In this document: one piece after another, positions 5,848 to 36,528 of the stretch
Layout of the letters: each line of letters begins with the position of its first letter
Numbering within the stretch: position 1 is the stretch's first letter
From: Legionellaceae bacterium
Lineage (GTDB): Bacteria > Pseudomonadota > Gammaproteobacteria > Legionellales > Legionellaceae
NCBI GenBank assembly: GCA_029210265.1
Contig: JARGNP010000018.1
Span: forward strand, 1 to 43,143
Direction: 5' to 3'
DNA length: 43,143 nucleotides
The notes under the pieces: generated by a model
What the model was told of the DNA's origin: nothing
Seen by the model: the letters and a program-made list of their open reading frames with translations, nothing else
Database searches by the model: none
Position numbers and translations under genes: made by a program

Positions 5848-5883
5848 GACATCTCTCGACTCTGAAAAAGGATAACAATCGAA

Positions 5884-7539: not shown

Positions 7540-9396
7540 CTAAAAAAAATCAAACGCCTTGCACCATGCTTGAAAGTTGAGTAACGACCAAATCAAGTAG
7601 GTATTGTCCGAGCGTTTTGAAAAATGATCATCCAAAACAGATTGGATGTATTTAGGTTGGAAAACACCTTGTTTTTTAATAATATTAGTTGCTAATGCCT
7701 TTTCTATCCATGGTCTTAATTTACCCCGGTACCACGCTGCATCAGGTGGTCCAAAGCCCATTTTAGGCTTTTTGTAAATTTTTTGAGGTACCCATGGTTT
7801 TACGGATTCACGGAACAAAATTTTGCCTACATTATCTTTGCAAAGATAAGAAAAAGGTACGTTAAGAACAAAATCAATCAGCTCATTATCTAATAGCGGA
7901 AGACGTGTTTCTAACGAATGCGCCATAGAAACTTTATCTTCAAGCGTAAGAAGCCCCACAAGATAGGTTTTAGCGTCCACGTAAAACATAATGTCACGCC
8001 AATCGTTGCTTGGGCACTGATTGATGAAATCATCCATGATGTCACTTGCGTTAAATCCACCGGTTGAACGTATAAAATCTTGCGTAAAAACTTGATGATA
8101 TTGAATCGGATTAAATAACGGGTTGAGTATTTGTTTATAGACCATTTTACGCTGAACATCGGTCATATGTGCTGGGTTCAAGCCATCTTTGCGTAATATT
8201 TTTTTCAGAATCGTACGCATGCTAGGACGAGGTGGCTTCGTGAGTCCTAGAGCCGCATAGCGCCCCACATAACCGGCATGAAACTCATCACCCCCAGTTC
8301 CTGACAACACCACTTTTGCATCTTCAGCAACACGTCCTGCGATTAAATAATTAACGTAGCCCATACCCATGCGCAAATCTTCTAATGCATACACATAATC
8401 ATCGAGCGAATGGCTTAATGCATCTTGATCAATCGTATATTCTACGCGATCGAGGCCTGCATGTTTCGCCACTTGCCTTGAGTATTCTCGCTCATCAAAA
8501 TGACGTCCGTTAACCACACCTTTTAAATCAAAAATACAACTGTATGCTTTAACACTCGGGTCTAATTGATGTGCTGCCATGGTAATCGCTGTGGAATCGA
8601 TGCCACCCGATAAATAGCTCGTGACAGGTACATCGGCTGCGAGCTGTCGTGTTACAGCGTTTGTCAAAATACTTCGGTGTTGTTCGGTTAAATCAGATAA
8701 ACTTCGATTAGATGTGGATGAACGCTCAAATTTTATATCCCAATACGTTGATTTGGTTAATTTATTATTTTTCCATGTTAAACACGTGGCAGGTTCTAAT
8801 TGTTTAATGCCTTTGAACATGGTGTCATCACGCCAAAGGTTTTGAAATGAAAAATACTCCATGATTCCAGACATGGATGGAGCTTTATCCACCAAGCCCG
8901 ATGCTAAAATCGCTTTGATCTCCGAACCAAACACCAAAGCATGTTGAGCTGTCTCAGCATAATACACGGGTTTAATCCCGTACCTATCTCGAACTAAAAT
9001 AAACGTATCTTGCTTTTCATCCCATAGTGCAAAAGCGAACATCCCGTTGAGTTTATTAAACAGCTGCTCGCCCCACTCTTCCCAGCCATGTACCAACACT
9101 TCTGTGTCAGAATGATCGGTTGCAAAACGATGGCCTTTTTGTATGAGTTGCTGACGAAGCTCGAGATGATTATAAATTTCGCCATTAAACACCACCCACA
9201 CCGTACCATCTTCGTTGGTCATCGGTTGTCGGCCATGCTCAATATCCATAATGGAGAGGCGTCTGAATGCAAACCCAACCTGGTTACCTAAATAAAATTG
9301 TTCATCATCAGGTCCTCGATGAACAATGGCATCCGCCATCTGTTTCAACGATGTTTTATTTGGAGGAACACCAATAATACCTGCTATCCCGCACAT
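7540..9396 (-). CDS. Asparagine-synthase-like amidotransferase, copy 1
   Basis: The 618-residue class II glutamine amidotransferase has a catalytic Cys2 (MCGIAGIIG), HRGPDD, FNGEIYNH and MFAFALWDE in the N-terminal glutaminase domain (about residues 2-215). The C-terminal PP-loop ATPase domain has YLSGGIDST near residue 262, SGTGGDEFHAGY and HSLETRLPLLDNELIDF. All residues needed for glutamine hydrolysis and ATP-dependent acyl activation are kept. In a polysaccharide locus such proteins (for example WbpS of P. aeruginosa O6 and the Bordetella wbm proteins) amidate uronic acids, which is the likelier role here than free asparagine synthesis. The ATG follows GAGGTG. It forms a minus-strand pair with the GT4 gene upstream of it and is closer to copy 3 (21260-23128) than to copy 2. 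Confidence 0.88.
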   Translation of the reverse strand: MCGIAGIIGVPPNKTSLKQMADAIVHRGPDDEQFYLGNQVGFAFRRLSIMDIEHGRQPMTNEDGTVWVVFNGEIYNHLELRQQLIQKGHRFATDHSDTEVLVHGWEEWGEQLFNKLNGMFAFALWDEKQDTFILVRDRYGIKPVYYAETAQHALVFGSEIKAILASGLVDKAPSMSGIMEYFSFQNLWRDDTMFKGIKQLEPATCLTWKNNKLTKSTYWDIKFERSSTSNRSLSDLTEQHRSILTNAVTRQLAADVPVTSYLSGGIDSTAITMAAHQLDPSVKAYSCIFDLKGVVNGRHFDEREYSRQVAKHAGLDRVEYTIDQDALSHSLDDYVYALEDLRMGMGYVNYLIAGRVAEDAKVVLSGTGGDEFHAGYVGRYAALGLTKPPRPSMRTILKKILRKDGLNPAHMTDVQRKMVYKQILNPLFNPIQYHQVFTQDFIRSTGGFNASDIMDDFINQCPSNDWRDIMFYVDAKTYLVGLLTLEDKVSMAHSLETRLPLLDNELIDFVLNVPFSYLCKDNVGKILFRESVKPWVPQKIYKKPKMGFGPPDAAWYRGKLRPWIEKALATNIIKKQGVFQPKYIQSVLDDHFSKRSDNTYLIWSLLNFQAWCKAFDFF

Positions 9397-9422
9397 GTTC
9401 GCACCTCGTGTATAAAATCAGA

Positions 9423-10703
9423 TTAAAACATCACTGATTGATAAATATTAATAATATTGGATGCAACGACGTGGGAAGCATACCTCTGTTCTGCTATTTT
9501 TCTAATATCAATTTTATTGAATTTATTAAAATTATTGGACTTATCACCACCTGATGCCATATCTAGCATGCCTTGTGCTAATGCCTGGGTTGATTGCTCA
9601 ACAACAAGACCTAGCGATGCGAGATTCACGATCTCACTCGGACCACCACAGTTTGTGCTCAAAATAGGAAGTCCACAACTCATGGCCTCAATGGTGACCA
9701 CTGAAAAGGTTTCTGTTTCACTAGAAACCACTAAAAAATCACTGGTTTGATAATGCTTAACAAGACCCTCTTGATTAGACCATCCTACAAATTCAACGTG
9801 CTCTTCTAACGACAAACGATCAACCATACGAACAAAATCATCTTGGAGTGCACCGTTTCCTAAAAGTTTGAGATATAATCTTGGTTCTGTTTTGATGGCA
9901 ATCGCTAAAGCTTCAAGCAACCTATCCACACGTTTAACTTCTACAAAATGCCCCACCCAGAGCATGCGTATTCTGGCATCAGATATATCACATGTTTGTG
10001 GCGCAACTTGAAATAGTTTGGTATTAACTAAATTAGGTAAAACACAGGTATTCGAGGGCTGCTTAACACGTACTTCGGAACAAATATCACGTAAAAGCGT
10101 GTGACTTACAGCAATTAATTTTTGAGAGGCATTGATAGCCAATTGCGTTTTTCGTTTACGTAGAAAAGTATTTGTTAATAACTTAAATGGTCCCATATGC
10201 TCGGTTATAACAAAAGGAATATGATATTTCTTAGAAATCTTTCGAGCTGCTGTACCATCAAGATAAGAGGTATGCGCATGAATGATTTGAAACTTAAACG
10301 TAGATTTTATTCGCGCAATGCATTGCAGTGCCCCAAAGGCATACGTATCAGCATCAACCTGAAAAGAACGAAACGAAAGCCCTGCCAAATAAGGAAATTT
10401 TATAACAGGAACGCCATCGACAAGCTCCCAGTCACAGATATTATCACGCATCCAGCGTCGATAATCTTGATAAAAAGAGCGAGGCCCAGAAGGCTCCCCG
10501 GTCAAGACCCTTGCATCAATACCTTGCTTTCTTAATGCTTTCACTTGCTCATGAACAAATATCCCACCGGATGGATGTGATTCTCTGGGATACATGTTTG
10601 ATAAGATCAAAACAACGGGTGGCTCATCGATACTAGCCTCATCCGAAGGCTTCGTTTGTGTACGCATACGCTGTCGCGTCAAGATTGCTCTAAAGCCTAA
10701 CAT
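9423..10703 (-). CDS. GT4 glycosyltransferase
   Basis: This 426-residue GT-B enzyme has VVLILSNMYPRESHPSGG (about residues 29-47), IIHAHTSYLDGTAARK and VITEHMGPF in the N-terminal domain. The C-terminal domain has IRMLWVGHFVEVKR, FLVVSSETETFSVVTIEAMSCGLPILSTNCGGPSEI with the E-x7-E donor motif. It shares the unusual HAHTxYLDGxAARK and TEHxGPF segments with the enzyme at 5884-7533 but lacks that protein's extra segment, so the two are paralogues on either side of the amidotransferase gene. The first 25 residues precede the conserved domain, and an internal Met at residue 13 is a possible start. It is followed after 26 nt by the amidotransferase gene on the same strand. Confidence 0.84.
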   Translation of the reverse strand: MLGFRAILTRQRMRTQTKPSDEASIDEPPVVLILSNMYPRESHPSGGIFVHEQVKALRKQGIDARVLTGEPSGPRSFYQDYRRWMRDNICDWELVDGVPVIKFPYLAGLSFRSFQVDADTYAFGALQCIARIKSTFKFQIIHAHTSYLDGTAARKISKKYHIPFVITEHMGPFKLLTNTFLRKRKTQLAINASQKLIAVSHTLLRDICSEVRVKQPSNTCVLPNLVNTKLFQVAPQTCDISDARIRMLWVGHFVEVKRVDRLLEALAIAIKTEPRLYLKLLGNGALQDDFVRMVDRLSLEEHVEFVGWSNQEGLVKHYQTSDFLVVSSETETFSVVTIEAMSCGLPILSTNCGGPSEIVNLASLGLVVEQSTQALAQGMLDMASGGDKSNNFNKFNKIDIRKIAEQRYASHVVASNIINIYQSVMF

Positions 10704-10866
10704 GTCATGTCATTCCTCTTTGCATGCTTACATATTTACATGAATAAAATACTTTAGGTAAGTGCTGGCAAAATTACAGAAAATTTGTTGCTTTATCAAG
10801 CTCTCGTTCATGATTTATTATAATTATGAACATCTTAATTTAATCACCTGATTTAACCTCCCGAAT

Positions 10867-10921
10867 AAAAAGTATATACTTCCCTGCACTCATATAAAGC
10901 ATGCAAACTGGAGGCCGCTTG
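10867..10921 (+). promoter_or_regulatory. Upstream elements of the ABC exporter genes
   Basis: The 11-mer AAGTATATACT (10870-10880) is the same as that before the operon at 1798; its 3' half can be read as a -10 box (TATACT). GGAGG at 10910-10914 sits 4 nt before an in-frame TTG at 10919, while the ATG at 10901 has no ribosome binding site. The divergent gene starts at 10703, so the 197-nt gap must hold both promoters. Confidence 0.35.
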
Positions 10922-11704
10922 AATTCCATTTTTAGTGAAGAATTAAAATCACTTAGAACACATTGGCAAATGTGGTACCTGCTTGGTAGCCAAGATATTA
11001 AACTACGTTATCGTCGCTCAACCATCGGGCCCTTTTGGCTCACCATCAGCACTGCGGTAACTATTTATACCATGGGCTTTTTGTATTCTTATTTATTCAA
11101 GGTCAACATTCATACTTATTTTCCATACCTTGCTTCAGGTATTATCTGCTGGACGTTTATATCGACCCTCGTACAAGAAAGCAGTTCAGCGCTCATCGAA
11201 TCCGTCACCTATATTAAGAACCAATCATCTTATATTTCTATATTTTTAATGCGCTTGATACTTCGAAATTGTATTGTGCTATTTCATAATTTGCTCGTTT
11301 TTATACCTATCGCCATCTATCTAAAACTTGGCATCAACTGGCAGACCTTTTTAATCATCCCCGGTCTTGTTATCCTGTGTATTAATGCCTTTGCATGGGG
11401 TGGTGTTATTGCCATTCTAGGAACGCGATACAGAGATTTCGATCAAATCATCAAAAGCCTCATGCAAGTGGTTTTCTTTACAACACCCATTATGTGGCTA
11501 CCGACACTTTTGCCCGAGGAATATCACTGGATTATTGCTGTTAATCCGTTTGCTCAATACTTAGCACTTATTCGTAACCCCTTGCTCGGTCACGGCTTTG
11601 AATTAAGTACCCTTATCTCCATAGGCATACTTTCCTTTGTAGGACTTGGATTATTTGCTTTGTGTATCAATAAATACAAACATCGTATTGTTTTCTGGTT
11701 ATAG
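10901..11704 (+). CDS. wzm: ABC-2 type polysaccharide export permease Wzm
   Basis: The 267-residue membrane protein has the ABC-2 polysaccharide exporter pattern. A cytoplasmic N-terminus with DIKLRYRRSTIGPFWLTIS (about residues 31-49) is followed by about six hydrophobic segments, with the conserved ending VNPFAQYLALIRNPLLG before the last one. It forms the membrane channel that moves the finished undecaprenyl-linked glycan to the periplasm, together with the ATPase encoded 7 nt downstream. The ATG at 10901 lacks a ribosome binding site. TTG at 10919 has GGAGG 4 nt ahead of it and may be the true start, giving a protein 6 residues shorter. The pair points to ABC-dependent rather than Wzx/Wzy-dependent export. 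Confidence 0.88.
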   Translation: MQTGGRLNSIFSEELKSLRTHWQMWYLLGSQDIKLRYRRSTIGPFWLTISTAVTIYTMGFLYSYLFKVNIHTYFPYLASGIICWTFISTLVQESSSALIESVTYIKNQSSYISIFLMRLILRNCIVLFHNLLVFIPIAIYLKLGINWQTFLIIPGLVILCINAFAWGGVIAILGTRYRDFDQIIKSLMQVVFFTTPIMWLPTLLPEEYHWIIAVNPFAQYLALIRNPLLGHGFELSTLISIGILSFVGLGLFALCINKYKHRIVFWL

Positions 11705-11711
11705 GTGCCTT

Positions 11712-12458
11712 ATGTCTTCAATAGAATTAACAGATGTCTCGTTAGATTATTTAATAAAAACAGGTACTGCTTCTTTGAAGCAAACACTTTTGTCTTTGTT
11801 TAACCCGTCTAAAAACAAACACATCAATATTAATAACTCAAAATTTCGCGCCTTAAATGGCATTAATTTAAAAATTAACAAAGGTGATCGTGTTGGGCTT
11901 TTAGGTCAAAATGGCGCAGGAAAAAGTACGCTCTTGCGTGTGATGGCAAAAATATACGCCCCAACCTCCGGAAGTTTGCATATCAATGGTGAAATTTCTA
12001 ATTTATTTGATGTGAATTTAGGACTCAATGTTGAAGCAACAGGATATGAAAATATTTTGAATCTAGGCATCATGAGAGGATGGAGTAAGCAAGACGCTTA
12101 CAGCATCGTCGAAGATATTGAATCGTTCACAGAGCTGGGCGACTTTCTTAACAAGCCCGTCTGTACCTATTCAACAGGCATGCAAATGAAACTGGTGTTC
12201 GCCGTAGCAACAGCGCGCCCACCTGAAATCGTACTCATCGATGAGATCATTGGAGCGGGTGACGCGCGATTCATGAAAAAAGCAACGCAACGCATCGAAG
12301 ACATGGTGAACAAGAGCCATATTCTTGCCCTTACCAGCCATTCAAATGAAATCATTCAACGCTTCTGTAATAAAGTCGCTATATTAGAAAAAGGGAAAGT
12401 CATCTTCTTTGGCGACGTGGCAGAAGGCATCGACACGTACCAAGCAAGCTTAAATTAA
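11712..12458 (+). CDS. wzt: ABC polysaccharide export ATPase Wzt, short form
   Basis: The 248-residue ATPase has Walker A GQNGAGKST (about residues 65-73), the family's variant signature YSTGMQMKL, Walker B IVLIDEIIGAGDARF and the switch LTSHS. It powers export by the adjacent permease. It stops right after the nucleotide-binding domain. It lacks the roughly 150-residue C-terminal carbohydrate-binding domain of Wzt proteins such as E. coli O8/O9a, and so resembles the short KpsT/RfbB-like ATPases whose export does not depend on a capped chain end. The reading frame is open from 11646, but the ATG at 11712 gives the normal N-terminus (MSSIELTDVSLDY). It ends 20 nt from the convergent GT gene. 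Confidence 0.88.
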   Translation: MSSIELTDVSLDYLIKTGTASLKQTLLSLFNPSKNKHININNSKFRALNGINLKINKGDRVGLLGQNGAGKSTLLRVMAKIYAPTSGSLHINGEISNLFDVNLGLNVEATGYENILNLGIMRGWSKQDAYSIVEDIESFTELGDFLNKPVCTYSTGMQMKLVFAVATARPPEIVLIDEIIGAGDARFMKKATQRIEDMVNKSHILALTSHSNEIIQRFCNKVAILEKGKVIFFGDVAEGIDTYQASLN

Positions 12459-12478
12459 CTCAAACATAGCGGCTTATA

Positions 12479-13813
12479 TCACGCCAGCAATGCATCATAA
12501 TCTTTGATCATGGTGCTAATTGCAGCTTCCCAATTGTAGGTGTGATGAATACTTTCCTGCCCTCGCTTGCCCATCAAATTCGTTTCAACACGATTGCTGT
12601 CTAGTTTAAATAAAGCATCCGCAATGCTCTGAGGATTGCTAGGCTCAAATGTGATGCCGTTTTGCTCCCGCTCAATATGCGCCCGCACATCAGGAAAGTT
12701 TGAAACAGCCACAGGAAGTCCGGCTAAGCTATACTCAAAAAATTTATTCGGATAAAACCAATAGAAATTTTTACAAAGATTTTCAAGCATCACAATACCA
12801 CAATCTGCGCCGTTGCTCGCAGCAACCACATCATCACGCCCAACGGCCGGTAAAATAAAAATACGATGTTGGATATTAAGTGACGCTGCGAGTTGCATAT
12901 ATTCAGGGCCATAAAATTCTACACCAGGACCACGAATTACAAACACAAAATGCTCATCAAGCTTAGCATGTGCTTTAATCACATTTTCGATGTTACGGCC
13001 CGGGCCAACACCACCAATATACAGCGTAATAAAATGCTCTGGTGTTAAATTCAAACTACTTTTTAACGAGTCAAACCCACTTCCATCGTGTGCTAACGAA
13101 GCAATATCCGGATAATTAGCAAGTAACTTGGGTCGATATTGATGACGACGCTCATATTCATCTAAGATAGATGCACTCACAGAATAAAATAACGTAACGT
13201 CCCTCAAAAGCCGCCCTTCTAATTTTTGATAGAAAAAACGCTTTCTCGCCTGCATTTGAACATACTTTCCATTTTTATAGGTAACATTCTCAGACCACAT
13301 TTCATGAGAATCATAAACGAGAGGCACGCCACTTTGTTTTGAAATAACCCAACCCGTAGCCAACGTTGTCAAATCATTGGCATGCACAAAATCAAAGTCA
13401 AAATCAGCACTTGCCTTTACAAAATGTGATTGATAACTCATTTTAATTTTTTGCGTGAGATGTGTGGCTTTAATTCGAATATATTTGATATTTTCAGCAA
13501 TATCCTGAATCACAATCGGTTGATCTTGATTAGGAAGTTCTGGGCAAAAAATAGTAACCTGATAACCTTTGGCAGCAAGACTTGATGCTACTTTATTTAT
13601 TCGACAATCAATCTCGATCATACTGATTGTGAGCATCAGTATTTTTTTTCCTAAAGGAGCTTTAGGTTTAATCTTACTCTTTTTATGGGATGTCTTGAGC
13701 ATCAAGTAGGCCACTTTTTTCAAGTTAAAAAGCTCAACGCCATCCATGAGAATTGCCAGTGCGGCATTATTTAATATAAACTTTTTTAAAGATAATACGC
13801 TTTTATTAAACAT
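12479..13813 (-). CDS. GT4-like glycosyltransferase
   Basis: The 444-residue GT-B protein has an N-terminal extension of about 50 residues, then KKILMLTISMIEIDCRINKVASSL, DFDFVHANDLTTLATG and YDSHEMWSE in the N-terminal domain. FITLYIGGVGPGRNIENVI and NFYWFYPNKFFEYSLAGLPVAVSNFPDVRAHI lie in the donor-binding domain. The NKFFEYSLAGLP element is typical of GT4 and related enzymes. It is the last gene of the long minus-strand polysaccharide block and follows the 2-epimerase gene by 28 nt, with AAGGA before the ATG. Substrate is unknown; its distance from the promoter makes it a late gene of the operon. Confidence 0.8.
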   Translation of the reverse strand: MFNKSVLSLKKFILNNAALAILMDGVELFNLKKVAYLMLKTSHKKSKIKPKAPLGKKILMLTISMIEIDCRINKVASSLAAKGYQVTIFCPELPNQDQPIVIQDIAENIKYIRIKATHLTQKIKMSYQSHFVKASADFDFDFVHANDLTTLATGWVISKQSGVPLVYDSHEMWSENVTYKNGKYVQMQARKRFFYQKLEGRLLRDVTLFYSVSASILDEYERRHQYRPKLLANYPDIASLAHDGSGFDSLKSSLNLTPEHFITLYIGGVGPGRNIENVIKAHAKLDEHFVFVIRGPGVEFYGPEYMQLAASLNIQHRIFILPAVGRDDVVAASNGADCGIVMLENLCKNFYWFYPNKFFEYSLAGLPVAVSNFPDVRAHIEREQNGITFEPSNPQSIADALFKLDSNRVETNLMGKRGQESIHHTYNWEAAISTMIKDYDALLA

Positions 13814-13841
13814 GTTTTCTAAATCCTTGGTTACGCTCTAT

Positions 13842-14939: not shown

Positions 14940-14953
14940 GGCAACTCACTTTG

Positions 14954-16204
14954 TCATTGCTGTATATTAAATAACTTCAAATAATCACGTGCTAACACCT
15001 GATAATCATATTTGAGTTCCACCGCTTGCTTACCACGAGCGCCCATGGCCAAGCGCTGCTCATCGGAAAGCTCTTGCATTTGCAAGATAGCGTTCATAAT
15101 AGCTAATGGATTCGCAGCATCACAGCGTAAACCACATCCCAAACGCTCAATCATGCTATCCGGTGCACCACCCGACTCAATAATCGGTGTTTCAGACATC
15201 ATGTAGTCAAATATTTTATTGGGACTCACACCATACTCATATAAATCAACTGCATTCCAACCAAGATAAAGCACATCCATTTGATTCAAAAACCCCGGCA
15301 CTTCATGTTTAGAAATACCATTAAAAAACGTAATATTAGCTAAATTTTCTTGCGCAGCATACGCTTCTAAATCAGCTTTTAACGCGCCCTCTCCAAGTAA
15401 AAATACATGAATGTTGTGCTGCTTATCAGCTAAAAGCTTCATGGCTGAAATCAAATATTTTAAAGCATTGGGCTCACCGAGCGCACCGGCATATCCCACT
15501 AAAAAAGCACCGCTTTGCTTCACCGCTTGAATGCAATCCACCATGGCTTCGGGTAGCTTTTCAGGCAAACAAAACAGGTCTGGATTCGTGCCATTCGGGA
15601 TCACATAAAAACGCGCAGGGTCTAGGCCTTTGGCTTTCATATAAGGCAACGCCTTATCCAGCAAAGATACCACAGCATCAGCATGTTTATAGGCATATTT
15701 TTCAATCGATGCAATCCATTGTGATAAAGGATGCAAGGGATGAAGTTTGGCTAATTGAATTAACGAAAGTGGCCACAAGTCACGCACTTCAAAAATTAAT
15801 ATCGCGTCATGCTTTTTCGCAAATTTTTCCAGTGTTTTAAAATGAAAAGGATGCGCTGACGATACAATAATCACGTCCGGCTTACCGGTAAGCTTCATGA
15901 TATTTTTTTTCTGGGTGCGAAATTTAAACGCATACTGAAGCATGTTCATCAAACGGCTCAAGCCGTTTTCCCGATAGGCACGCGTTTTTAATAAAACAAA
16001 CGGGACGTTTTCTATCATTGTTTTCTTAATTGCTTCCTGCTGAGGTTCAGAGGCTTGCTTTAGATGATGATGACTCGCGCTGATCACATACGCTTGATGA
16101 CCGGCCTGGTTAAATGCTTGGGTAAAATAATACGGCCGATAGGACATCCCAAGCGATGGTGAGCCTGCGTAATGATGACAGTACCAAATAACTTTATTCT
16201 TCAT
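14954..16204 (-). CDS. GT4 glycosyltransferase (WbuB-like)
   Basis: The 416-residue GT-B enzyme opens with KVIWYCHHYAGSPSLGMSYRP, carries KPDVIIVSSAHPFH and FEVRDLWPLSL, and in the C-terminal half has VGYAGALGEPNAL, ITFFNGISKHEVPGFLNQMDVLYLGW and VSPNKIFDYMMSETPIIESGG. The HP-F and EVRDLWP elements and the SPNKIFDYM loop are those of WbuB/FnlE-like GT4 enzymes, which often transfer FucNAc-like sugars, so a donor such as the deoxy-L-hexosamine made in this locus is possible but not shown. The frame is open further upstream, but ATG 16204 has AGGTGAG 5 nt before it and lies just after the preceding stop codon. The next gene follows 14 nt after its end. Confidence 0.85.
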   Translation of the reverse strand: MKNKVIWYCHHYAGSPSLGMSYRPYYFTQAFNQAGHQAYVISASHHHLKQASEPQQEAIKKTMIENVPFVLLKTRAYRENGLSRLMNMLQYAFKFRTQKKNIMKLTGKPDVIIVSSAHPFHFKTLEKFAKKHDAILIFEVRDLWPLSLIQLAKLHPLHPLSQWIASIEKYAYKHADAVVSLLDKALPYMKAKGLDPARFYVIPNGTNPDLFCLPEKLPEAMVDCIQAVKQSGAFLVGYAGALGEPNALKYLISAMKLLADKQHNIHVFLLGEGALKADLEAYAAQENLANITFFNGISKHEVPGFLNQMDVLYLGWNAVDLYEYGVSPNKIFDYMMSETPIIESGGAPDSMIERLGCGLRCDAANPLAIMNAILQMQELSDEQRLAMGARGKQAVELKYDYQVLARDYLKLFNIQQ

Positions 16205-16212
16205 ACGCTCAC

Positions 16213-18024
16213 CTAGAGTTTCTCCGCTAACCACAAAGCCGTGGTAAGTTCAGCAAAACGATGTTCTGACTTTTCAAGCTGAACTGGACTAAAATAATCA
16301 CATGGCTTTTCTGTCATAAATGCTTCTAATACAGGCGATGCTTTTCGGACATGTTTATGTAACTCAAGTCCGAGTGTTTTACGTATGGCTTGATTTTTAG
16401 TTACATCAAAGCCGCGCTTATAGCGCGCTTTGCAAATTGTGGCGGGTACCTGTTTTTTCAGCAAGTCACGGAGCATCCATTTGCCATAACCGTTTTTTAA
16501 TTTTTGCCGTATAGGTAAGGCACAGGCAAGTTCGATCAAACGATAATCCATAAAAGGCAGCCGGGTCTCAATGCTATGCGCCATCGAATTACGATCTTCA
16601 TAACGTAACAGCGTCGGCAAACTAAACTGTAATATATCAGCTATTTGCCGGTCACGGACATCACTTGAAGCGCCCACCTGAAGCGCGGCCATATCACCGG
16701 GTAGATTTAGCCCCACCGCTTGTCCTGAAGCCTGTGTGTATCGCACACTGTTTTTCAAAAAAGTCGCCATCTGACGCTTTTCTGCCCACAACATTTGACT
16801 CAGCCCTAAACCAAACGAAGCAACAGACGTCCACTCACGCGCTTTAAGCAATTCTTTGAGATAAAAAAACTGATATTTTCGATAACCAAGAAACGCTTCA
16901 TCGCCACCTTGGCCGCCTAGAATAACTTTGAACCCTGCATCCTTAATTTTTTTGTAAAGCAAATGCTGTGCCATCACACTTAAGCTTGGAAACGGTGCAT
17001 CTTGATGATGTAATGTTTGCCAAAACGCATCACTCCACTCATCAGCTTGAGGTGCAACAAAATGCAGCTTAATATCATGCTGAGACGCGACTTGCTGAGC
17101 AAGAAGTCCTTCAGACTGTTTATCTTGTAACGAGCCAAAACAAAACGCCTCAAGATGGACTTGTTGCTCTTTTGAAATAGCCGCAATACCTGATGAATCT
17201 AGCCCACCGCTCATAGCAACCGCAACCGGTACATCAGCTCGTAGACGCAGTTTATTCGCGTCATACAATAACCTACAGACCTCATCTTTAAGTTGATTTT
17301 CCGTAAAGCCTTGAATAGCCTCACGGGCAGATATCACACGTGCTTTCAAATCGTAATAACGTATAATCTTAGCTTTTAAATTTTTGTCTAATAATTTAAA
17401 TTGCAGTACATGCCCTGCTGGAACGGCATGCAAATTTTTATACGCCGTTCGTGAGCTTGCGTCTTCATACACCCCATACTGAAGACCTTGTTTTAAATAC
17501 ATAAAATCAGGCGCTAAACCGCAATGCTTAGCAACAGGTGCCGTAGTCGACGAAAAGATAAGGCGTTGATTATCGAAATAATAAAAAAGCGGTTTTACAC
17601 CAAAACGATCACGTCCTAATAACAGCGTATTATCTTGTGTATTAAAATAAGCAAAAGCAAACATGCCATTGCATCGTTGAATACCGTCAATTCCCCAGTG
17701 ATTTAGCACATAAAACAACACCTCGGTATCAGACGTTGTGCGGAACTCAATGCCTTCACGCTCCAGCTCTATTTTTAATTCTCGATAGTTATAAATTTCA
17801 CCATTAAAAACCAAATAGCCTAAACGCGATGCGTTCTTAAACGGCTGGTTGGCTTCATCGGATAAGCAAATAATTTTTAGGCGATTATGACCTAACTGTA
17901 ATATTTTTCCATTAGATAATAGATGCGCTTCTGACGCAACAAAATCTGGACCACGATGCATTTGTGATGCTAAAAAATCATCAATAGGGATATCAAAATT
18001 ATAACTACCGACTATGCCGCACAT
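16213..18024 (-). CDS. Asparagine-synthase-like amidotransferase, copy 2
   Basis: The 603-residue protein has Cys2 (MCGIVGSYN), MHRGPDF, FNGEIYNYREL and MFAFAYFN in the glutaminase domain. The synthetase domain has AMSGGLDSS near residue 271, LGGQGGDEAFLGYRK and HSIETRLPFMDYRLIELA. The glutaminase and ATP-pyrophosphatase sites are therefore intact. It differs from copies 1 and 3 in the acceptor region (it has AFCFGSLQ and HHQDAPFPSLSV where the others have a long FDER segment), so it belongs to another subfamily and probably amidates another acceptor. The role proposed is amidation of a hexuronic acid in the repeat unit. Its start overlaps the preceding GT gene by 13 nt, and the next GT gene starts 8 nt after its stop, so it is firmly embedded in the operon. 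Confidence 0.87.
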   Translation of the reverse strand: MCGIVGSYNFDIPIDDFLASQMHRGPDFVASEAHLLSNGKILQLGHNRLKIICLSDEANQPFKNASRLGYLVFNGEIYNYRELKIELEREGIEFRTTSDTEVLFYVLNHWGIDGIQRCNGMFAFAYFNTQDNTLLLGRDRFGVKPLFYYFDNQRLIFSSTTAPVAKHCGLAPDFMYLKQGLQYGVYEDASSRTAYKNLHAVPAGHVLQFKLLDKNLKAKIIRYYDLKARVISAREAIQGFTENQLKDEVCRLLYDANKLRLRADVPVAVAMSGGLDSSGIAAISKEQQVHLEAFCFGSLQDKQSEGLLAQQVASQHDIKLHFVAPQADEWSDAFWQTLHHQDAPFPSLSVMAQHLLYKKIKDAGFKVILGGQGGDEAFLGYRKYQFFYLKELLKAREWTSVASFGLGLSQMLWAEKRQMATFLKNSVRYTQASGQAVGLNLPGDMAALQVGASSDVRDRQIADILQFSLPTLLRYEDRNSMAHSIETRLPFMDYRLIELACALPIRQKLKNGYGKWMLRDLLKKQVPATICKARYKRGFDVTKNQAIRKTLGLELHKHVRKASPVLEAFMTEKPCDYFSPVQLEKSEHRFAELTTALWLAEKL

Positions 18025-19106
18025 GCTTCGTAAACCTTTTGTGTTAACGTTGCAACGTATTTAGGATCATGCCATTTTTCAACAAAAACTTTAGAGCGCG
18101 CGCCTTGCTCTACAAGCATTTCTCGATGTTTAATAATACGCTCAAGCTCATCTAAAATATTATTTTTTGTCATGTTTAGAACAGGAATATCTTCCGCAAA
18201 ACCAGGAGGCAAAAATTTTAAATCATCCGGATTAATATACGCTGCAACAGGAATACCCATTTTCATCACTTCAACCGCTAAGCCACCGTACCAACCAATG
18301 AGAAGCTGATCAATCACTAAATCTGCGGTTTTATAAATAGCCAGAGCCTCGTCATAAGGCATATTTTCGACAAGTTTAAAATTAATCTGATTAGGAAATT
18401 TTTTCTGTAAGGCTTCGACCGCTTCAATCACATACGCACTACCTTTGGCAACACGCTGCGTGGGTGCATGAACAATATTAATTTTATCATGCTCAAAAAA
18501 CATATTAGATTTAGGTTGAATCGCATCAAAATTAGGTATGGTATAAGGCAAAAACGACGATTTATCTTCCGGAAGAAAATGTAATAAATCCGGATTCAAT
18601 GCAAACGCATGATGGCAATATGACATCATTTTGTTAATCGCACGTCGCCGTCGTTCATCACGCTTACCTGAATTGCAAATGCCATCATGACAGCCATCGT
18701 ATAAACATGCCGCGTGCTGGGGAGTTCCTGTTCCCGCGTTAAGGCGCTCCATGGTTCCGTATTTTTGGCGTGCATCGCATCCTTGATAGGTCACTACTTT
18801 AATCGCTTTTTTACGATAAAAAGGCAAGTCGGCAAGATTTAAACCTAAGCTTAAATAATGAATCAGGCTTGAACCAAAATTAAAATGATACACATCATAA
18901 GCCGTACGTGTTTTAAAAAAAACGCGGACTCGATGATAGAGTTGACTTAAAAGCGTATTTTTCGCGGGCATAATCAAGTCGCTAGGAAAGTCATACACTG
19001 ATTTTCCAATAGATAATGCTTTTGCATCCAAACCTAGCTGACGCTCACCTTGAGCAAGACCAAAGGCATTTCCCGCGACGTTTGAAGGTAGGTGTAAAAC
19101 TTTCAT
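18012..19106 (-). CDS. GT4-like glycosyltransferase
   Basis: The 364-residue protein begins MKVLHLPSNVAGNAFGLAQGER. It has a Cys-containing middle part (TYQGCDARQKYGTMER, AACLYDGCHDGIC) and a GT-B C-terminal domain with INIVHAPTQRVAKGSAYVIEAVE, YDEALAIYKTADLVIDQLLIGWYGGLAVEVMKMGIPVAAY. The VIDQL-GWYGGLAVEVMKMG loop stands where GT4 enzymes bind the donor. The next gene upstream encodes a related protein with the same KGS and DQL elements, so the two look like a diverged tandem pair. The ATG overlaps that gene by 4 nt (ATGA), and the downstream amidotransferase gene overlaps by 13 nt. The four Cys residues in the middle could bind a metal, though this is only a possibility. Confidence 0.75.
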   Translation of the reverse strand: MKVLHLPSNVAGNAFGLAQGERQLGLDAKALSIGKSVYDFPSDLIMPAKNTLLSQLYHRVRVFFKTRTAYDVYHFNFGSSLIHYLSLGLNLADLPFYRKKAIKVVTYQGCDARQKYGTMERLNAGTGTPQHAACLYDGCHDGICNSGKRDERRRRAINKMMSYCHHAFALNPDLLHFLPEDKSSFLPYTIPNFDAIQPKSNMFFEHDKINIVHAPTQRVAKGSAYVIEAVEALQKKFPNQINFKLVENMPYDEALAIYKTADLVIDQLLIGWYGGLAVEVMKMGIPVAAYINPDDLKFLPPGFAEDIPVLNMTKNNILDELERIIKHREMLVEQGARSKVFVEKWHDPKYVATLTQKVYEACAA

Positions 19107-20386
19107 GTTTTTTTCTCAAGCAACGGATGATAAAAATTAATTAAATCCACATCTTTATTTTTAAAGTATATTTTTCGATAAATTGCTTCAAACATATCGG
19201 CTGTAGCTGTATATGAATGCCGGTGTTCTACATAGGCGCGTGATGCCCTACCCATCGTATCCCATGTTTTTCTCTGAGCTATGAGTTGTTTTAATACATC
19301 ATAAATCGTATCTGGATTTGCACTAACGATAGGGCACTCGTTGAGATAAGAGAAACGACGGAATAAGTCATATTCAGGACTATTATCTAATGCGCTTATA
19401 ACAATTTTTCCAAAAGCAAGGCCTTCAAGTGCAGCTTGAGCATAGCCAAAAATAAGTTGATCAACATAGATATCACAGGCTTTGATGCGCGCCAAAGCTT
19501 CTTCATTAGGCACAGCCTCAATAATATCCAGCTGCACATTAAAACCAGCATCAACTAGGCGCTCCACGGCATCAATTAAAAATACTGATCCTTTCACACC
19601 ACGATGATTACACGCATGTGCTATACGTATAGGACTATTTTTTTTAGTCTCAGGATACACAGGTTCAAAGCGCTTCGTATCTACGGGATAACACGTGAGA
19701 GGCAAAATATCCCAGCGGGGTAAATTAATACAATGCACCAAACACGCAATAACAATATCGGCCGACGCCGTCATACGCCTTATTTTTTTCTGAAGCATTG
19801 CTGCTGTATTACCAAAGCGACTGTACTCAATCATCAAGCCATGCCGCCAAAGTACATTCGGTATCAAATCATACACAAAAGCATCGCTACCGTACGGCAA
19901 CAAAACGATTTTTTTTCGACAAAGTTTTAATATACTTAATTCGAGCCTTGAAAATAGCGTATGCCTCAGTAAGCCCCCATCAAAATAATAATGGAACACG
20001 TCATATTTCCAAAGCGCGCGCATGAAAAAACAATAGGCCATCAAATTACCTAAACACAGCTTCATAATTTTGGGATAAGCACCTTCGGGTGACAACACCA
20101 CATCAAACGTATCTCTCGGGTAAATAGGTGATTCAACCAGAACAGCTGTATCACTCACATAACCTCGCTCTTTAAGCGCACGAGCCATGTACGCAATAGA
20201 TATAATAGGTGTTACACCAAATAACAGCTTTGGTTTTTTATTTTTGGCAGGAAAAAAATTCAAACCCATTTTAATAATCAAAAACACACATAAATTAAAT
20301 GGCAACAGAGTAATTGCAAGCATGGCCCAAGGCAGGTCAAGAACACATCGAACCAATGTTTTTATATGATTATTCATGTGAATCAT
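19103..20386 (-). CDS. GT4-like glycosyltransferase with N-terminal membrane segment
   Basis: The protein of about 427 residues has a strongly hydrophobic N-terminus (LPWAMLAITLLPFNLCVFLIIKM, about residues 18-40) that may anchor it in the inner membrane, then KPKLLFGVTPIISIAYMARAL. The C-terminal part has IRIAHACNHRGVKGSVFLIDAVE, ALARIKACDIYVDQLIFGYAQAALEGLAFGKIVISA. This matches the KGS and DQL blocks of the next gene, so the two are tandem paralogues. Starts are uncertain: ATG 20386 and ATG 20377 are both possible and neither has a clear ribosome binding site; a TTG lies at 20389. The gene overlaps the end of the SDR gene. Donor and acceptor are unknown. Confidence 0.75.
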   Translation of the reverse strand: MIHMNNHIKTLVRCVLDLPWAMLAITLLPFNLCVFLIIKMGLNFFPAKNKKPKLLFGVTPIISIAYMARALKERGYVSDTAVLVESPIYPRDTFDVVLSPEGAYPKIMKLCLGNLMAYCFFMRALWKYDVFHYYFDGGLLRHTLFSRLELSILKLCRKKIVLLPYGSDAFVYDLIPNVLWRHGLMIEYSRFGNTAAMLQKKIRRMTASADIVIACLVHCINLPRWDILPLTCYPVDTKRFEPVYPETKKNSPIRIAHACNHRGVKGSVFLIDAVERLVDAGFNVQLDIIEAVPNEEALARIKACDIYVDQLIFGYAQAALEGLAFGKIVISALDNSPEYDLFRRFSYLNECPIVSANPDTIYDVLKQLIAQRKTWDTMGRASRAYVEHRHSYTATADMFEAIYRKIYFKNKDVDLINFYHPLLEKKT

Positions 20387-21251
20387 CAAGCAAGTACTTC
20401 AGCCCCTCATCTAACGGTGTAAACTTAAAATGACCTGCATGGCGCATAAATTTATCCAGATTAGGAATAATCGTAGGTGCAGGCGTATCCGGCCGGTATT
20501 TAATCTTCGCTTGAACACCCAACTGCCCACCGAGCATATCAGCTATGACCGCTAAACTTGATGCTGTTGGATTTGCAAAATTAAATATACCAACCAAGTC
20601 TTTTTCAATCACTAATTGAATGCAATCGGCCACATCACGCGTCAACGTTGGTACAAACCGCAAGCCTTGGCTATCAGCTCCATCAATTACAATTTCTTCG
20701 CCTTGTTTTACACGATTCACCAACATATTAATCAACGTATGTTTAGGTGTAACACTCGGACCATACAAAAAAAACAAACGTAATACCGTTACTTTAAAAT
20801 AGGTTTCATAAGAAGCCAAAAGACGCTCGGCAATTAACTTACTGTTCGCATAAAACGAAGTAGGAGCAAGTGCAGCAGATTCCAATAATTCACGCTCATA
20901 AGGCTCGTACACACTTCCCGTTGATGTGAAAATAAAATGCTGCACTCCTGCTGCTCGGGCATAATCCAATAAACGCGCCGTTGAATCACAATTTACACGG
21001 AATACGTGCTCAGCTTGATTTGGAAAATCTCTATAATGTGGTGATTGCGCTAAATGCACAATTATATCGACGTGCTTAGGCAATAAAGCAACATCAAATG
21101 CTTGTGATAAATCACAGGTTATATATTCGATTGCATCATCTTTGATTTCAGGCGTAGCTCGCATCAAAGCTATCAACTGATGATTATCAGATAATGCGTG
21201 CAATACTTCTGGGCCTAATAAACCGTTTGAGCCTGTGATTAAAATTTTCAT
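20370..21251 (-). CDS. NAD-dependent epimerase/dehydratase (SDR)
   Basis: The 293-residue extended SDR starts MKILITGSNGLLG with the GxxGxxG dinucleotide motif at residues 7-13, then has FTSTGSVYEP for the catalytic Ser/Thr and SFYANSK (Y-x3-K). Length and motifs fit nucleotide-sugar epimerases, dehydratases or reductases; substrate cannot be assigned. The ORF extends 11 codons further upstream, but ATG 21251 gives the standard SDR N-terminus and follows the amidotransferase stop by 8 nt. It sits between an amidotransferase gene and a GT gene and probably helps to make or modify one sugar of the repeat unit, perhaps together with the SDR at 23134-24147. Confidence 0.8.
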   Translation of the reverse strand: MKILITGSNGLLGPEVLHALSDNHQLIALMRATPEIKDDAIEYITCDLSQAFDVALLPKHVDIIVHLAQSPHYRDFPNQAEHVFRVNCDSTARLLDYARAAGVQHFIFTSTGSVYEPYERELLESAALAPTSFYANSKLIAERLLASYETYFKVTVLRLFFLYGPSVTPKHTLINMLVNRVKQGEEIVIDGADSQGLRFVPTLTRDVADCIQLVIEKDLVGIFNFANPTASSLAVIADMLGGQLGVQAKIKYRPDTPAPTIIPNLDKFMRHAGHFKFTPLDEGLKYLLDDSHE

Positions 21252-21259
21252 ATTACTTT

Positions 21260-23128
21260 TTATGCATCCAAATAAGTCGTACAAAATTGCTCAAGCGATA
21301 ATAAAGACCAAATCATCAACCGATGGTTAACTTGACCATTTAAATGCTCAGACACCTTGTTCTGAATATATTGCTTATCTAAATAATGATAAATATTGGA
21401 TCGATCATTAAACACAATATTTTTAACATACTCCATACTTTCGCCCTGAAACCAACTCGCGTCGGGAGCAGAAAAACCTTGTTTTACTTTCTCAACCACA
21501 TCCGTTGGGAGAAACTTTTTCATCATGTCACGCAAGATAAGTTTTCCATCCCGCGATTTTTGTAAATAACGTGAAATATCTTCTTGCTTAGCACCTGCAG
21601 ATACGACCTTGTCCAAGCAACCTAATTTAACCGATGTCGGTAATTTAAGTGCAAAATCAACCAAATCATTATCTAAGAAAGGTACCCGTGTCTCTAAACC
21701 ATGCGCCATCGATAGCTTATCTTCTATGACCAGCAAGCCATGCAAAAAGGTCTTTGCTTCAAAATACAACGAATGATTAACCAAAGTTTCGGGCGTGATT
21801 TTTTGGCTCGATGAAACGCCCTTGAAAACATCTTTAAAAGCATCAAACGGAGAAAAATGACTGACGTTGTTCCAAATAGGAGAAAACGCTTGTTGATGGT
21901 CTTGCTCTTTAATAATACGTTGCCAATAGCCGTAATAACTTTGCTGATAATCATCAAAATTCTTATGTTGGACTTGGGGGTAATAACGCCATGGATACCC
22001 TGCAAAAATTTCATCCCCTGCGGTTCCCGCTAAAACCACTTTCCCAAATTTACTGGCTAGACGTGAAACATAATAATTAGGATAACATTGCCCAACACGT
22101 GGCTCTTCAACGTGATACGCCAAGGACGGCATGCAACGCTCCATATCACCCGCTTTAAGTACCATTTCATAATGTTCTGTTTTAAACAAATACGACATGC
22201 GTTCGGCTTCACGTCGTTCATCAAACGTTTGTTCGATACCTGATGCCGAACTTAAATCAAAGCCACATGTAAATGTCTTGATGTACGGCAGTTGTAACGA
22301 AGATATCGCAGTGATTGCACCAGAGTCCATACCTCCTGAAAGATAAGCCCCGAGCTCTACATCACTCACCAATTGACGATTAACACTTTGACGAAAAAGA
22401 TATTCTAGTTCTTCAATATATTCATCTTTTGAAAGCGCTTGCTCAGGTTCTTCATAAGCAAAATCCCAATATTTAAATAATTTTTCTTCGGTCTGAGTCA
22501 CCGATAGAATTGCTCCAGCAGGCAGCATGTTGATATTTTTAAACAACGTGCGATCAGAAATAATATTCTGGAACGTCAAATATTCAACCAGGGCTTCTTG
22601 GTCCATGTCAGCAGCAACACGTGGATGCTTGAGCAAGGCTTTAATTTCAGATGCAAAAACAAAGCTGTTACCGGCCATGGTGTAATACAACGGCTTGATG
22701 CCATAGCGATCACGCACCAGCATCAGTTCAGATTTAGTTTTATCCCAAATTGCAAATGCAAACATGCCGTTAAAGCGCTGAACGGCGTCAAGCCCCCATT
22801 CAGCAAAGGCATTGAGAACCACTTCGGAATCCGTCGTCGAATGAAACGCATGCCCTCGTGCCTCAAGTTCAGTTCGGAGCTCACGAAAGTTATAGACCTC
22901 GCCGTTATAGGTGAGCACGAAACGGCCGTCGCGTGTCACCATAGGCTGATGCCCTTGCGGACTCAAATCAATGATGGCCAAACGCCGATGCCCTAAAGCA
23001 ATCGGTCCATCAGACCATACACCCTCACCATCGGGACCACGGTGCTCCAACGCGTTGGTCATGGCTTCAATCAAACGCGTTTCAGCTGGTTCGTGGTTAC
23101 GATTAAATAATCCAGTTATCCCACACAT
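21260..23128 (-). CDS. Asparagine-synthase-like amidotransferase, copy 3
   Basis: The 622-residue protein has Cys2 (MCGITGLFN), HRGPDGEG, YNGEVYNFREL and MFAFAIWDK in the glutaminase domain, and YLSGGMDSG near residue 262, LAGTAGDEIFAGYPWRY and HGLETRVPFLDNDLVDFALKLP in the synthetase domain. It lines up along its whole length with copy 1, including the FDER-containing acceptor region and the PDA-W ending (GFSAPDASW here, GFGPPDAAW in copy 1), so these two share a subfamily. Ser after GGMD is followed by Gly rather than Thr/Ser, a mild change in the PP-loop. It starts 5 nt after the epimerase stop. In Bordetella wbm loci, similar proteins stand beside SDR genes and are linked to uronamide formation; the same role is proposed here. 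Confidence 0.88.
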   Translation of the reverse strand: MCGITGLFNRNHEPAETRLIEAMTNALEHRGPDGEGVWSDGPIALGHRRLAIIDLSPQGHQPMVTRDGRFVLTYNGEVYNFRELRTELEARGHAFHSTTDSEVVLNAFAEWGLDAVQRFNGMFAFAIWDKTKSELMLVRDRYGIKPLYYTMAGNSFVFASEIKALLKHPRVAADMDQEALVEYLTFQNIISDRTLFKNINMLPAGAILSVTQTEEKLFKYWDFAYEEPEQALSKDEYIEELEYLFRQSVNRQLVSDVELGAYLSGGMDSGAITAISSLQLPYIKTFTCGFDLSSASGIEQTFDERREAERMSYLFKTEHYEMVLKAGDMERCMPSLAYHVEEPRVGQCYPNYYVSRLASKFGKVVLAGTAGDEIFAGYPWRYYPQVQHKNFDDYQQSYYGYWQRIIKEQDHQQAFSPIWNNVSHFSPFDAFKDVFKGVSSSQKITPETLVNHSLYFEAKTFLHGLLVIEDKLSMAHGLETRVPFLDNDLVDFALKLPTSVKLGCLDKVVSAGAKQEDISRYLQKSRDGKLILRDMMKKFLPTDVVEKVKQGFSAPDASWFQGESMEYVKNIVFNDRSNIYHYLDKQYIQNKVSEHLNGQVNHRLMIWSLLSLEQFCTTYLDA

Positions 23129-25417: not shown

Positions 25418-25421
25418 AAAG

Positions 25422-29556: not shown

Positions 29557-29572
29557 TGCTCTTTCCTTAAAA

Positions 29573-30880
<1,308 letters not shown>

Positions 30881-36207: not shown

Positions 36208-36528
36208 ATGACAAAATCGAAAAACAATAAGAACGACAAGAATGATAAGAAAAAAACCATTGTTATTGAGGGCGTAACCTCAGAAGGTGAAACGTTCCGC
36301 CCCAGCGACTGGGCTGAGCGTATGAGCGGTGCGCTCGCGAGCTTTAAAAAAAGCCGAATCCATTACTCACCTTTATTACAGCCCAGCATTAATCACGACG
36401 GCTATAAGTGTGTTTTACTCGATCCTAAACTCAAAGAATCAAGTCCTCACATGTACCAATCTATTCTAGACTTTGCTAAAGCCAACAACTTAAATATTTG
36501 TGACGAAAACGACCCCCCTACCAATTAA
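36208..36528 (+). CDS. DUF3579 family protein
   Basis: The 106-residue protein starts with a Lys/Asn-rich stretch (about residues 2-17) and then has IVIEGVTSEGETFRPSDWAERMSGALASF, IHYSPLLQPSINHDGYKCVLLDPKLKE and SILDFAKANNLNICDE. I recognise this as the DUF3579 family of beta- and gammaproteobacteria, whose function is not known to me. It is a soluble protein with no signal or membrane segment. The start is ATG 36208 (GTG 36199 is an alternative); neither has a good ribosome binding site. It overlaps the icmC-like gene by 11 nt, tail to tail. Confidence 0.85.
   Translation: MTKSKNNKNDKNDKKKTIVIEGVTSEGETFRPSDWAERMSGALASFKKSRIHYSPLLQPSINHDGYKCVLLDPKLKESSPHMYQSILDFAKANNLNICDENDPPTN

What the first reader, a model, noticed from the sequence alone, without database searches (positions are those of the whole stretch)
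7540..23128. Three intact asparagine-synthase-like amidotransferases in one polysaccharide locus
Genes at 7540-9396, 16213-18024 and 21260-23128 all keep the glutaminase Cys2 and the SGG-D-S PP-loop. Copies 1 and 3 share a subfamily; copy 2 differs in its acceptor region. One such gene per O-antigen locus is known (uronamide formation); three active copies suggest amidation of several different uronic acids or at different steps. Each sits beside a different glycosyltransferase or SDR gene.
Basis: partly seen in the sequence, partly recalled or inferred. Interest (0 to 1): 0.6.

Follow-up and report, generated by a model that had tools for sequence, protein, structure and literature searches.

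The report
Three sugar-acid amidotransferases in one locus
This bacterium carries three different, intact enzymes that probably cap acidic sugars with ammonia in a single surface-polysaccharide gene cluster, where related clusters usually have one; the enzymes are of a known kind, the number is unusual.

Summary
In detail: three complete AsnB-type genes lie at the stated coordinates (all on the minus strand), each with Cys2, the glutaminase residues and an SGGxDS PP-loop. They are old paralogues (29-32% identity). Copies 1 and 3 share a clade; copy 2 lies elsewhere. A sister genome carries all three in the same order, under strong purifying selection (dN/dS 0.06, 0.07, 0.02). None has the full aspartate site of asparagine synthetase: the essential SGEG glutamate is T/Q/T and the Asp/Arg pair is not matched. 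The locus has genes for UDP-GlcNAc3NAcA, 2- and 4-epimerase-type genes and a Wzm/Wzt-type exporter. Best reading: three uronamide synthases with different acceptors in one O-chain; copy 3, near a C4-epimerase-type gene in four genomes, is the best assigned. Three within 20 kb was seen in no other of 104 class genomes, but 14 of 80 related loci hold two, and published cases suggest one enzyme can serve two residues. Three genes do not prove three amidated sugars. Caveat: the genome has AsnRS but no AsnA, GatB or other Cys2-bearing AsnB match.

The parts
7540..9396 (-). Amidotransferase copy 1 (AT1, 618 aa); in the samples searched no close homologue except in sister genome G004
16213..18024 (-). 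Amidotransferase copy 2 (AT2, 603 aa), separate clade, LGGQGGDE motif
21260..23128 (-). Amidotransferase copy 3 (AT3, 622 aa); relatives lie at or within one gene of the GalE-type gene in G004, G006:C15 and G199
23134..24147 (-). GalE/WbpP/WbgU-type NAD-dependent sugar 4-epimerase candidate
   Evidence: (galE 163 bits, under its cut-off of 262)
24179..25429 (-). L-2-hydroxyglutarate-oxidase-family FAD enzyme
   Evidence: (356.7 bits, cut-off 299)
25422..26015 (-). WbpD/WlbB-type N-acetyltransferase
   Evidence: best PDB match 3mqg, 312 bits
26032..27096 (-). WbpB/WlbA-type 3-dehydrogenase
   Evidence: best PDB match 3q2i, 508 bits
27096..28415 (-). WbpA-type nucleotide-sugar 6-dehydrogenase
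   Evidence: (TIGR03026, 425.9 bits)
28447..29583 (-). WbpE aminotransferase
   Evidence: best PDB match WbpE 3nyu, 449 bits
13842..14939 (-). WbpI-type UDP-GlcNAc3NAcA 2-epimerase
   Evidence: best PDB match 8sxv, 447 bits
20370..21284 (-). SDR/epimerase-family protein after AT3
19103..20389 (-). Possible glycosyltransferase (weak family matches only)
18012..19106 (-). Unassigned ORF of the operon (no NCBIfam or Pfam match)
14954..16234 (-). GT4 glycosyltransferase
12479..13813 (-). GT4 glycosyltransferase
11646..12458 (+). Wzt-type ABC transporter ATPase
   Evidence: best model 224.7 bits, under its cut-off of 400
10901..11704 (+). Wzm-type ABC transporter permease
   Evidence: best model 217.5 bits, under its cut-off of 380
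9423..10703 (-). GT4 glycosyltransferase beside AT1
1798..4838 (+). FnlB/FnlA/FnlC-type genes (UDP-L-FucNAc-type pathway)
   Evidence: first gene RmlD family, 86 bits, under cut-off; FnlA 550 bits, under its cut-off of 730; third gene over the wecB cut-off; the pathway name rests on their order
4831..7533 (+). GT2-type and GT4-type glycosyltransferases

Best explanation
The three proteins are glutamine-dependent uronamide synthases of the polysaccharide locus. Each hydrolyses glutamine at its Cys2 site, passes the ammonia through to the PP-loop domain, adenylates a hexuronic acid carboxyl with ATP and releases the uronamide. The three differ in acceptor. AT3 most likely amidates the diacetamido-uronic acid made by WbpA-B-E-D after C4 epimerisation by the 23134 gene (a GalNAc3NAcA-type sugar). 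AT2, in the stretch with the WbpI-type 2-epimerase and glycosyltransferases, and AT1, beside a glycosyltransferase, most likely amidate other residues of the same Wzm/Wzt-exported chain, or the same kind of acid at another step. Shown here: intact catalytic sites, purifying selection, loss of the full aspartate site, gene context. Inferred: amide chemistry, acceptor identity, and whether amidation happens on UDP-sugars or on the growing chain.
For: Catalytic residues of both half-sites are present in all three. dN/dS between the sister genomes is 0.059, 0.073 and 0.022, with the locus in the same order: 28 of 30 queried window genes were found; GT_177 was not found and GT4_5884 found only its 34% paralogue. 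The glutamate that human ASNS needs (E364; E364A and E364Q inactive, PMC6748925, passages) is T/Q/T, and the residues at Asp400/Arg403 are not matched. The wbp genes match solved enzymes of the UDP-GlcNAc3NAcA and ManNAc3NAcA route at 312-508 bits. AT3 and the GalE-type gene are adjacent in G000 and G004 and one aminotransferase-like gene apart in G006:C15 and G199. In 5 of the 6 other genus genomes searched (all but G004), the purA site holds one AsnB-type gene, then SDR-type ORFs, then wbpE-A-B-D-I. Deleting the P. gingivalis gene PGN_1234 (named wbpS) abolishes uronamide formation in a Wbp-pathway sugar (PMC7468200, abstract and passages).
Against: All three pass the NCBIfam equivalog cut-off for asparagine synthase TIGR01536 (446, 358 and 456 bits against 267). 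Some aspartate-pocket residues are kept: the Asp367 and Glu368 positions in all three, and Asp at the Asp334 position in AT1. The genome has AsnRS but no AsnA, GatB or other Cys2-bearing Asn_synthase match, so one copy might be needed for asparagine. The b-Cool case suggests that one enzyme can serve two residues. No functionally tested O-antigen amidotransferase sequence is in the tree. The GalE-type gene was not seen near the AT3 relatives of G015 (contig ends 0.5 kb after the gene) and G057 (broken gene).
Confidence: 0.68

Rival explanations
1. Functional overlap: two or three of the enzymes amidate the same uronic acid, and the copy number reflects mosaic assembly of the locus from different sources rather than different acceptors.
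For: The locus at the purA site is exchanged between genus members: one AsnB-type gene (ORFs of 641-663 aa) in 5 of 6 others against three different ones in G000 and G004. One asparagine-synthase gene accompanies two GalNAcAN residues in b-Cool.
Against: All three are kept under strong purifying selection in two genomes whose synonymous sites have diverged by dS 0.68-0.93 in these genes; identity of 29-32% and separate clades argue for different substrates.
Confidence: 0.2
2. One of the three, with a relaxed acceptor site, is also the cell's asparagine synthetase.
For: AsnRS present; AsnA and GatB not found; GatB not found in 7 of 7 genomes of the genus; no other Cys2-bearing Asn_synthase protein among the genome's 8 matches. 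B. subtilis AsnB, AsnO and AsnH each rescue an E. coli asparagine auxotroph (as told in PMC8554201, passages). TIGR01536 cut-off passed.
Against: Essential Glu replaced by T/Q/T, Thr336 position R/F/R (alignment uncertain there), Asp400/Arg403 not matched. Not grouped with E. coli AsnB. An amino-acid auxotroph fits just as well; the assembly is 97% complete.
Confidence: 0.07
3. One or more copies do other amide chemistry: peptidoglycan mDAP amidation (as B. subtilis or Listeria AsnB), or acetamidino formation on a nonulosonic acid, as was proposed for the T. forsythia cluster.
For: The genome has a LegB/LegC/NeuD/NeuB/NeuC-type nonulosonic acid operon on C11. The acetamidino role is a published suggestion (PMC6120980, passages).
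Against: All three sit inside the polysaccharide locus. AT3 is tied to the wbp and 4-epimerase-type genes, and no Asn_synthase match lies on C11.
Confidence: 0.05

Closest known systems
PGN_1234 (named wbpS), uronamide synthase of the Porphyromonas gingivalis Wbp/Vim pathway
   Same: AsnB-type gene beside wbp genes for a 2,3-diamino uronic acid; its deletion loses the uronamide (PMC7468200, abstract and passages)
   Different: One gene there against three here; its sequence was not compared
BB0880 of the Bordetella bronchiseptica b-Cool locus; wbmI of the Bordetella O-antigen locus
   Same: BB0880 is an AsnB-type gene in a surface-glycan locus; the b-Cool glycan carries two GalNAcAN residues (PMC12407052, passages). 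That wbmI is AsnB-type is recalled
   Different: A single asparagine synthase gene in that nine-gene locus; a baboon-isolate wbm locus is drawn with asparagine synthase 'genes' in the plural (PMC12243275, figure legend)
Single AsnB-type gene at the purA site in five sister genomes (G001, G002, G003, G005, G006)
   Same: Same chromosomal site, beside wbpE-A-B-D-I
   Different: One copy, 32-33% identical to AT3; lacks the AT1/AT2/AT3 set
Escherichia coli AsnB
   Same: Glutaminase site and PP-loop
   Different: 28-30% identity; several aspartate-site residues not kept
Three AsnB-type genes in a Candidatus Accumulibacter MAG locus (L060)
   Same: Three Cys2+PP-loop copies within about 9 kb
   Different: No match at E<=1e-40 to the nine window sugar and export proteins that were searched

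Membership tests
Glutamine-hydrolysing asparagine synthetase (true AsnB) | Cys2 glutaminase and SGGxDS PP-loop | tested here: met
   all three
Glutamine-hydrolysing asparagine synthetase (true AsnB) | Glu of SGEG (human E364), needed for activity | tested here: not met
   T, Q, T in copies 1, 2, 3 (requirement from PMC6748925, passages)
Glutamine-hydrolysing asparagine synthetase (true AsnB) | Asp/Arg pair (human D400/R403) of the aspartate site | tested here: not met
   among 162 aligned proteins only E. coli AsnB has both; gap placement there is uncertain, and reading back from the conserved (D/N)(K/R) also gives no D and R
Glutamine-hydrolysing asparagine synthetase (true AsnB) | Groups with a proven AsnB | tested here: not met
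   E. coli AsnB was the only proven reference
Glutamine-hydrolysing asparagine synthetase (true AsnB) | NCBIfam TIGR01536 cut-off | tested here: met
   446, 358, 456 bits against 267
Glutamine-hydrolysing asparagine synthetase (true AsnB) | Makes asparagine from aspartate | not testable with these tools
   needs an assay
Polysaccharide uronamide synthase (WbpS, WbmI, WbtH type; names partly recalled) | AsnB-type protein in a polysaccharide locus with uronic-acid genes | tested here: met
Polysaccharide uronamide synthase (WbpS, WbmI, WbtH type; names partly recalled) | Groups with a functionally tested member | not tested
   No such sequence was obtained; one attempt, a blastn search of the E. 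coli genomes with copy 3, found nothing
Polysaccharide uronamide synthase (WbpS, WbmI, WbtH type; names partly recalled) | Loss of the gene loses the uronamide | not testable with these tools
   needs mutants and NMR or MS
XrtA/PEP-CTERM amidotransferase (TIGR03108) | Curated score cut-off 816.9 | tested here: not met
   479, 272, 454 bits
Lasso peptide cyclase (NF033535) | Curated score cut-off 525 | tested here: not met
   216, 188, 276 bits
Peptidoglycan mDAP-amidating AsnB | Extra loop in the substrate region | not tested
   no reference sequence at hand

The most novel reading that the evidence does not exclude
A single O-chain is neutralised by three enzymes with separate specificities, one for each of three related acids (for example a GlcNAc3NAcA, GalNAc3NAcA and ManNAc3NAcA type), so that the amide pattern is written residue by residue. 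The locus would then give a matched set of paralogues for learning how AsnB-type enzymes choose a sugar acceptor.
Probability: 0.3. Interest if true: 0.5.

Novelty: new variant of a known kind. Interest (0 to 1): 0.36.

Why it matters
If the three enzymes have different acceptors, they form a natural set for working out acceptor specificity in sugar-amidating AsnB-type enzymes. All three pass the curated cut-off for asparagine synthase although none keeps the full aspartate site, so the locus is also a caution against inferring asparagine prototrophy from that name.

Tried and rejected
True asparagine synthetase: rejected on active-site residues and tree position; a side activity is kept as a rival. 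Recent tandem duplication: rejected, 29-32% identity. Decaying copies: rejected by dN/dS. XrtA and lasso-cyclase families: under their cut-offs. A single source of uronic acids in the genome: rejected, because two further nucleotide-sugar dehydrogenases (UDP-ManNAc DH and UDP-Glc DH type) lie on C11. Led nowhere: a blastn search for a homologue in the E. coli genomes; Pfam and NCBIfam for the ORFs at 177, 18012 and 36518; the listings of paper searches for amidotransferases in such loci showed no case of three, but I saw the listings and passages of a few papers only, and the library is open-access. No structure was predicted.

Limits of the rarity count. Searches list about 150 rows each, and copy 2 of the window itself falls below that cut in both. 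For one search (104 genomes, E<=1e-45) I read the table and re-added it by script: 170 matches, 25 genomes with three or more. Combining the listed rows with the weaker rows of the same genomes shown, and noting that a trio with one unlisted member needs two listed members close together, none of the 24 other genomes has three within 20 kb on one contig. Contig breaks and copies weaker than 1e-45 could hide some. For one search (110 genomes, E<=1e-60) I only looked by eye at the listed rows and saw no trio; this is not a count. In one search eight of the 80 loci showed no copy; one search shows each has one relative that failed my motif filter (five on the PP-loop spelling, three on the start). 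Without the filter the 80 loci hold one (65), two (14) or three (1) ORFs of at least 400 aa.
Full report
What is there. The window is the whole contig C42 of a 2.32-Mb, 97% complete genome (G000). Three AsnB-type ORFs lie on the minus strand at 7540-9396 (AT1, 618 aa), 16213-18024 (AT2, 603 aa) and 21260-23128 (AT3, 622 aa). Each holds GATase and Asn_synthase domains over the Pfam cut-offs. The alignment with E. coli AsnB shows in all three the Cys2, the Arg, Asn-Gly-Glu and Asp residues of the glutaminase pocket, and the PP-loop. Of the five other PF00733 matches of the genome, two are long proteins, on C26 (620 aa) and C40 (544 aa), and both lack Cys2; the other three cover only short parts of the model.

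How they are related. Pairwise identity is 32% (AT1/AT3), 29% (AT1/AT2) and 29% (AT2/AT3), and 28-30% to E. coli AsnB. In a midpoint-rooted tree of 162 Cys2 and PP-loop proteins from the loci held, AT1 and AT3 fall in a clade of 7 (support 0.986), AT2 in a separate clade of 60 (support 1.0), and E. coli AsnB elsewhere. Some deep branches have almost no support (0.017 and 0.04). In a 229-genome class sample that includes G000, AT3 has one close intact homologue (G199, 60%) and one with stops (G057, 52%); three more reach E<=1e-90 at 33-39% identity. AT1's best match in that sample is 38% (25 other genomes at E<=1e-90). AT2's best matches are 38-40% (G059, G034). Among relatives, AT3-like proteins were also found in G015 (61%) and G006:C15 (50%).

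All three are kept. Sister genome G004 holds the locus in the same order: 28 of 30 queried window genes were found; GT_177 was not found and GT4_5884 found only its 34% paralogue. Nei-Gojobori dN/dS between the two genomes is 0.059 for AT1, 0.073 for AT2 and 0.022 for AT3, with dS 0.68, 0.93 and 0.92; purA in the same comparison gives 0.025. The gene spacing suggests one transcription unit for AT3 and AT2: AT2 overlaps both neighbours and AT3 follows the GalE-type gene by 5 bases (starts are mechanical).

Not asparagine synthetase by its acceptor site. In human ASNS, E364A, E364Q and D367A are inactive with aspartate, and the modelled pocket for the amino group of the inhibitor is formed by E364, D367 and D400 (PMC6748925, passages). 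Listeria AsnB, an mDAP-amidating enzyme, is described as lacking the conserved Asp-binding D and R (PMC8554201, passages). In AT1, AT2 and AT3 the E364 position is T, Q and T; D367 and E368 are kept; the D334 position is D, A and E; the T336 position is R, F and R; and neither D400 nor R403 is matched (the alignment around 334-336 and 400-403 holds gaps and is less certain). Of the 162 proteins 12 have Glu at the E364 position, and only E. coli AsnB has D and R at the pair. Against this, all three pass the TIGR01536 asparagine synthase equivalog cut-off, so automatic annotation would probably call them asparagine synthase.

Where asparagine comes from is open. The genome has AsnRS (643 bits, cut-off 343), no AsnA match and no GatB match. 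GatB was not found in 7 of 7 genomes of the genus, while 12 of the 25 genomes searched have it. The cell is either an asparagine auxotroph or one of the three enzymes supplies asparagine, unless a gene lies in the missing 3% or another route exists. The residues favour auxotrophy.

The locus. By best match to solved structures, the genes are WbpE (3nyu, 449 bits), WbpB/WlbA (3q2i, 508 bits), WbpD/WlbB (3mqg, 312 bits), a UDP-GlcNAc3NAcA 2-epimerase (8sxv, 447 bits), a WbpA-type dehydrogenase and a 4-epimerase-type SDR (6dnt 151 bits; WbgU and WbpP 134 bits). The WlbA and WlbB names for 3q2i and 3mqg are recalled; the tables name them dehydrogenase and LPS acetyltransferase. An FnlBAC-type set and a Wzm/Wzt-type exporter are also present, the exporter by best model under its cut-off. 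The cell can thus probably make GlcNAc3NAcA, ManNAc3NAcA and a C4 epimer. Contig C11 adds UDP-ManNAc dehydrogenase, a UDP-Glc-dehydrogenase-type gene and a nonulosonic acid operon, so there are enough different acids for three enzymes.

Context elsewhere. In 5 of the 6 other genus genomes searched (all but G004) the purA-hflC-hflK site carries one AsnB-type gene (ORFs of 641-663 aa; the only strong match on that contig), then two SDR-type ORFs (the second only about 200 aa in G003 and G005), then wbpE-A-B-D-I. AT3 and the GalE-type gene are adjacent in G000 and G004, and one aminotransferase-like gene apart in G006:C15 and G199; the pair was not seen in G015, whose contig ends 0.5 kb after the gene, nor in G057. 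This ties AT3 to a C4-epimerised sugar of the wbp route. G034:C45 has two AsnB-type genes with wbpA, wbpD and wbpE.

How unusual. Among 80 named loci found with AT2, 65 hold one Asn_synthase-type ORF of at least 400 aa, 14 two and 1 three (L060, a Candidatus Accumulibacter MAG); with a stricter Cys2 and PP-loop filter the numbers are 59, 12 and 1, with 8 failing the filter. In a class sample of 104 genomes, 25 hold three or more matches at E<=1e-45, but only G000 has three within 20 kb (the deduction and its limits are in Tried and rejected). Among 52 relatives, G000 and G004 do at that strength. Three in one locus is therefore rare but not unique.

What they most likely do. Shown: intact sites, selection, loss of the full aspartate site, and context. 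Inferred: each makes a uronamide with glutamine as nitrogen donor, and the three differ in acceptor. Precedent: deletion of PGN_1234 (wbpS) loses the uronamide of a Wbp-pathway sugar (PMC7468200, abstract and passages). Caution: the nine-gene b-Cool locus has one asparagine synthase gene and its glycan two GalNAcAN residues (PMC12407052, passages), so gene count need not equal amide count. The F. tularensis O-antigen likewise has two GalNAcAN (PMC3866875, passage); that a single WbtH serves both is recalled.

Verdict. The enzymes are a known kind; three selected, diverged copies in one locus is an unusual arrangement.

Noticed in passing
window 24179-25429; L130 4858-5709: An L-2-hydroxyglutarate-oxidase-family FAD gene sits in the wbp operon, is kept in G004 (91%), and a 41% match sits beside the GalE-like gene of G006:C15. 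P. aeruginosa WbpB makes D-2-hydroxyglutarate (PMC8651671, passages), so this gene may recycle a WbpB by-product of the other hand, or act on a sugar.
   Followed up: partly
G001, G002, G003, G005, G006 at purA (L123, L124, L125, L128, L131): The polysaccharide locus beside purA keeps its wbp genes (74-87% identity to the window for wbpA, B, D and E) but exchanges its amidotransferases and SDR genes between species of the genus.
   Followed up: partly
L004 89-1951: A 620-aa Asn_synthase-family protein without Cys2 on contig C26, beside an ORF that looks like a transposase (recalled resemblance); best model is lasso peptide cyclase, under its cut-off (307 against 525 bits).
   Followed up: no
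L005 1300-2934: A 544-aa Asn_synthase-family protein without Cys2 on C40, beside an RNase E/G-like ORF (recalled resemblance).
   Followed up: no
L191 5582-18899: WecB, glucose-6-phosphate isomerase, UDP-ManNAc dehydrogenase, UDP-Glc-dehydrogenase-type, LegB, LegC, NeuD, NeuB and NeuC-type genes in a row.
   Followed up: partly
G057:C34 9437-10729: An AT3 homologue (52%) is interrupted by stop codons in a stretch with wbpE- and wbpD-like genes.
   Followed up: no
window 42325-42993: Protein with a CHASE3 sensor domain near the contig end (28.2 bits, cut-off 28).
   Followed up: no
window 36518-37057: A 179-aa ORF with no Pfam or NCBIfam match.
   Followed up: no
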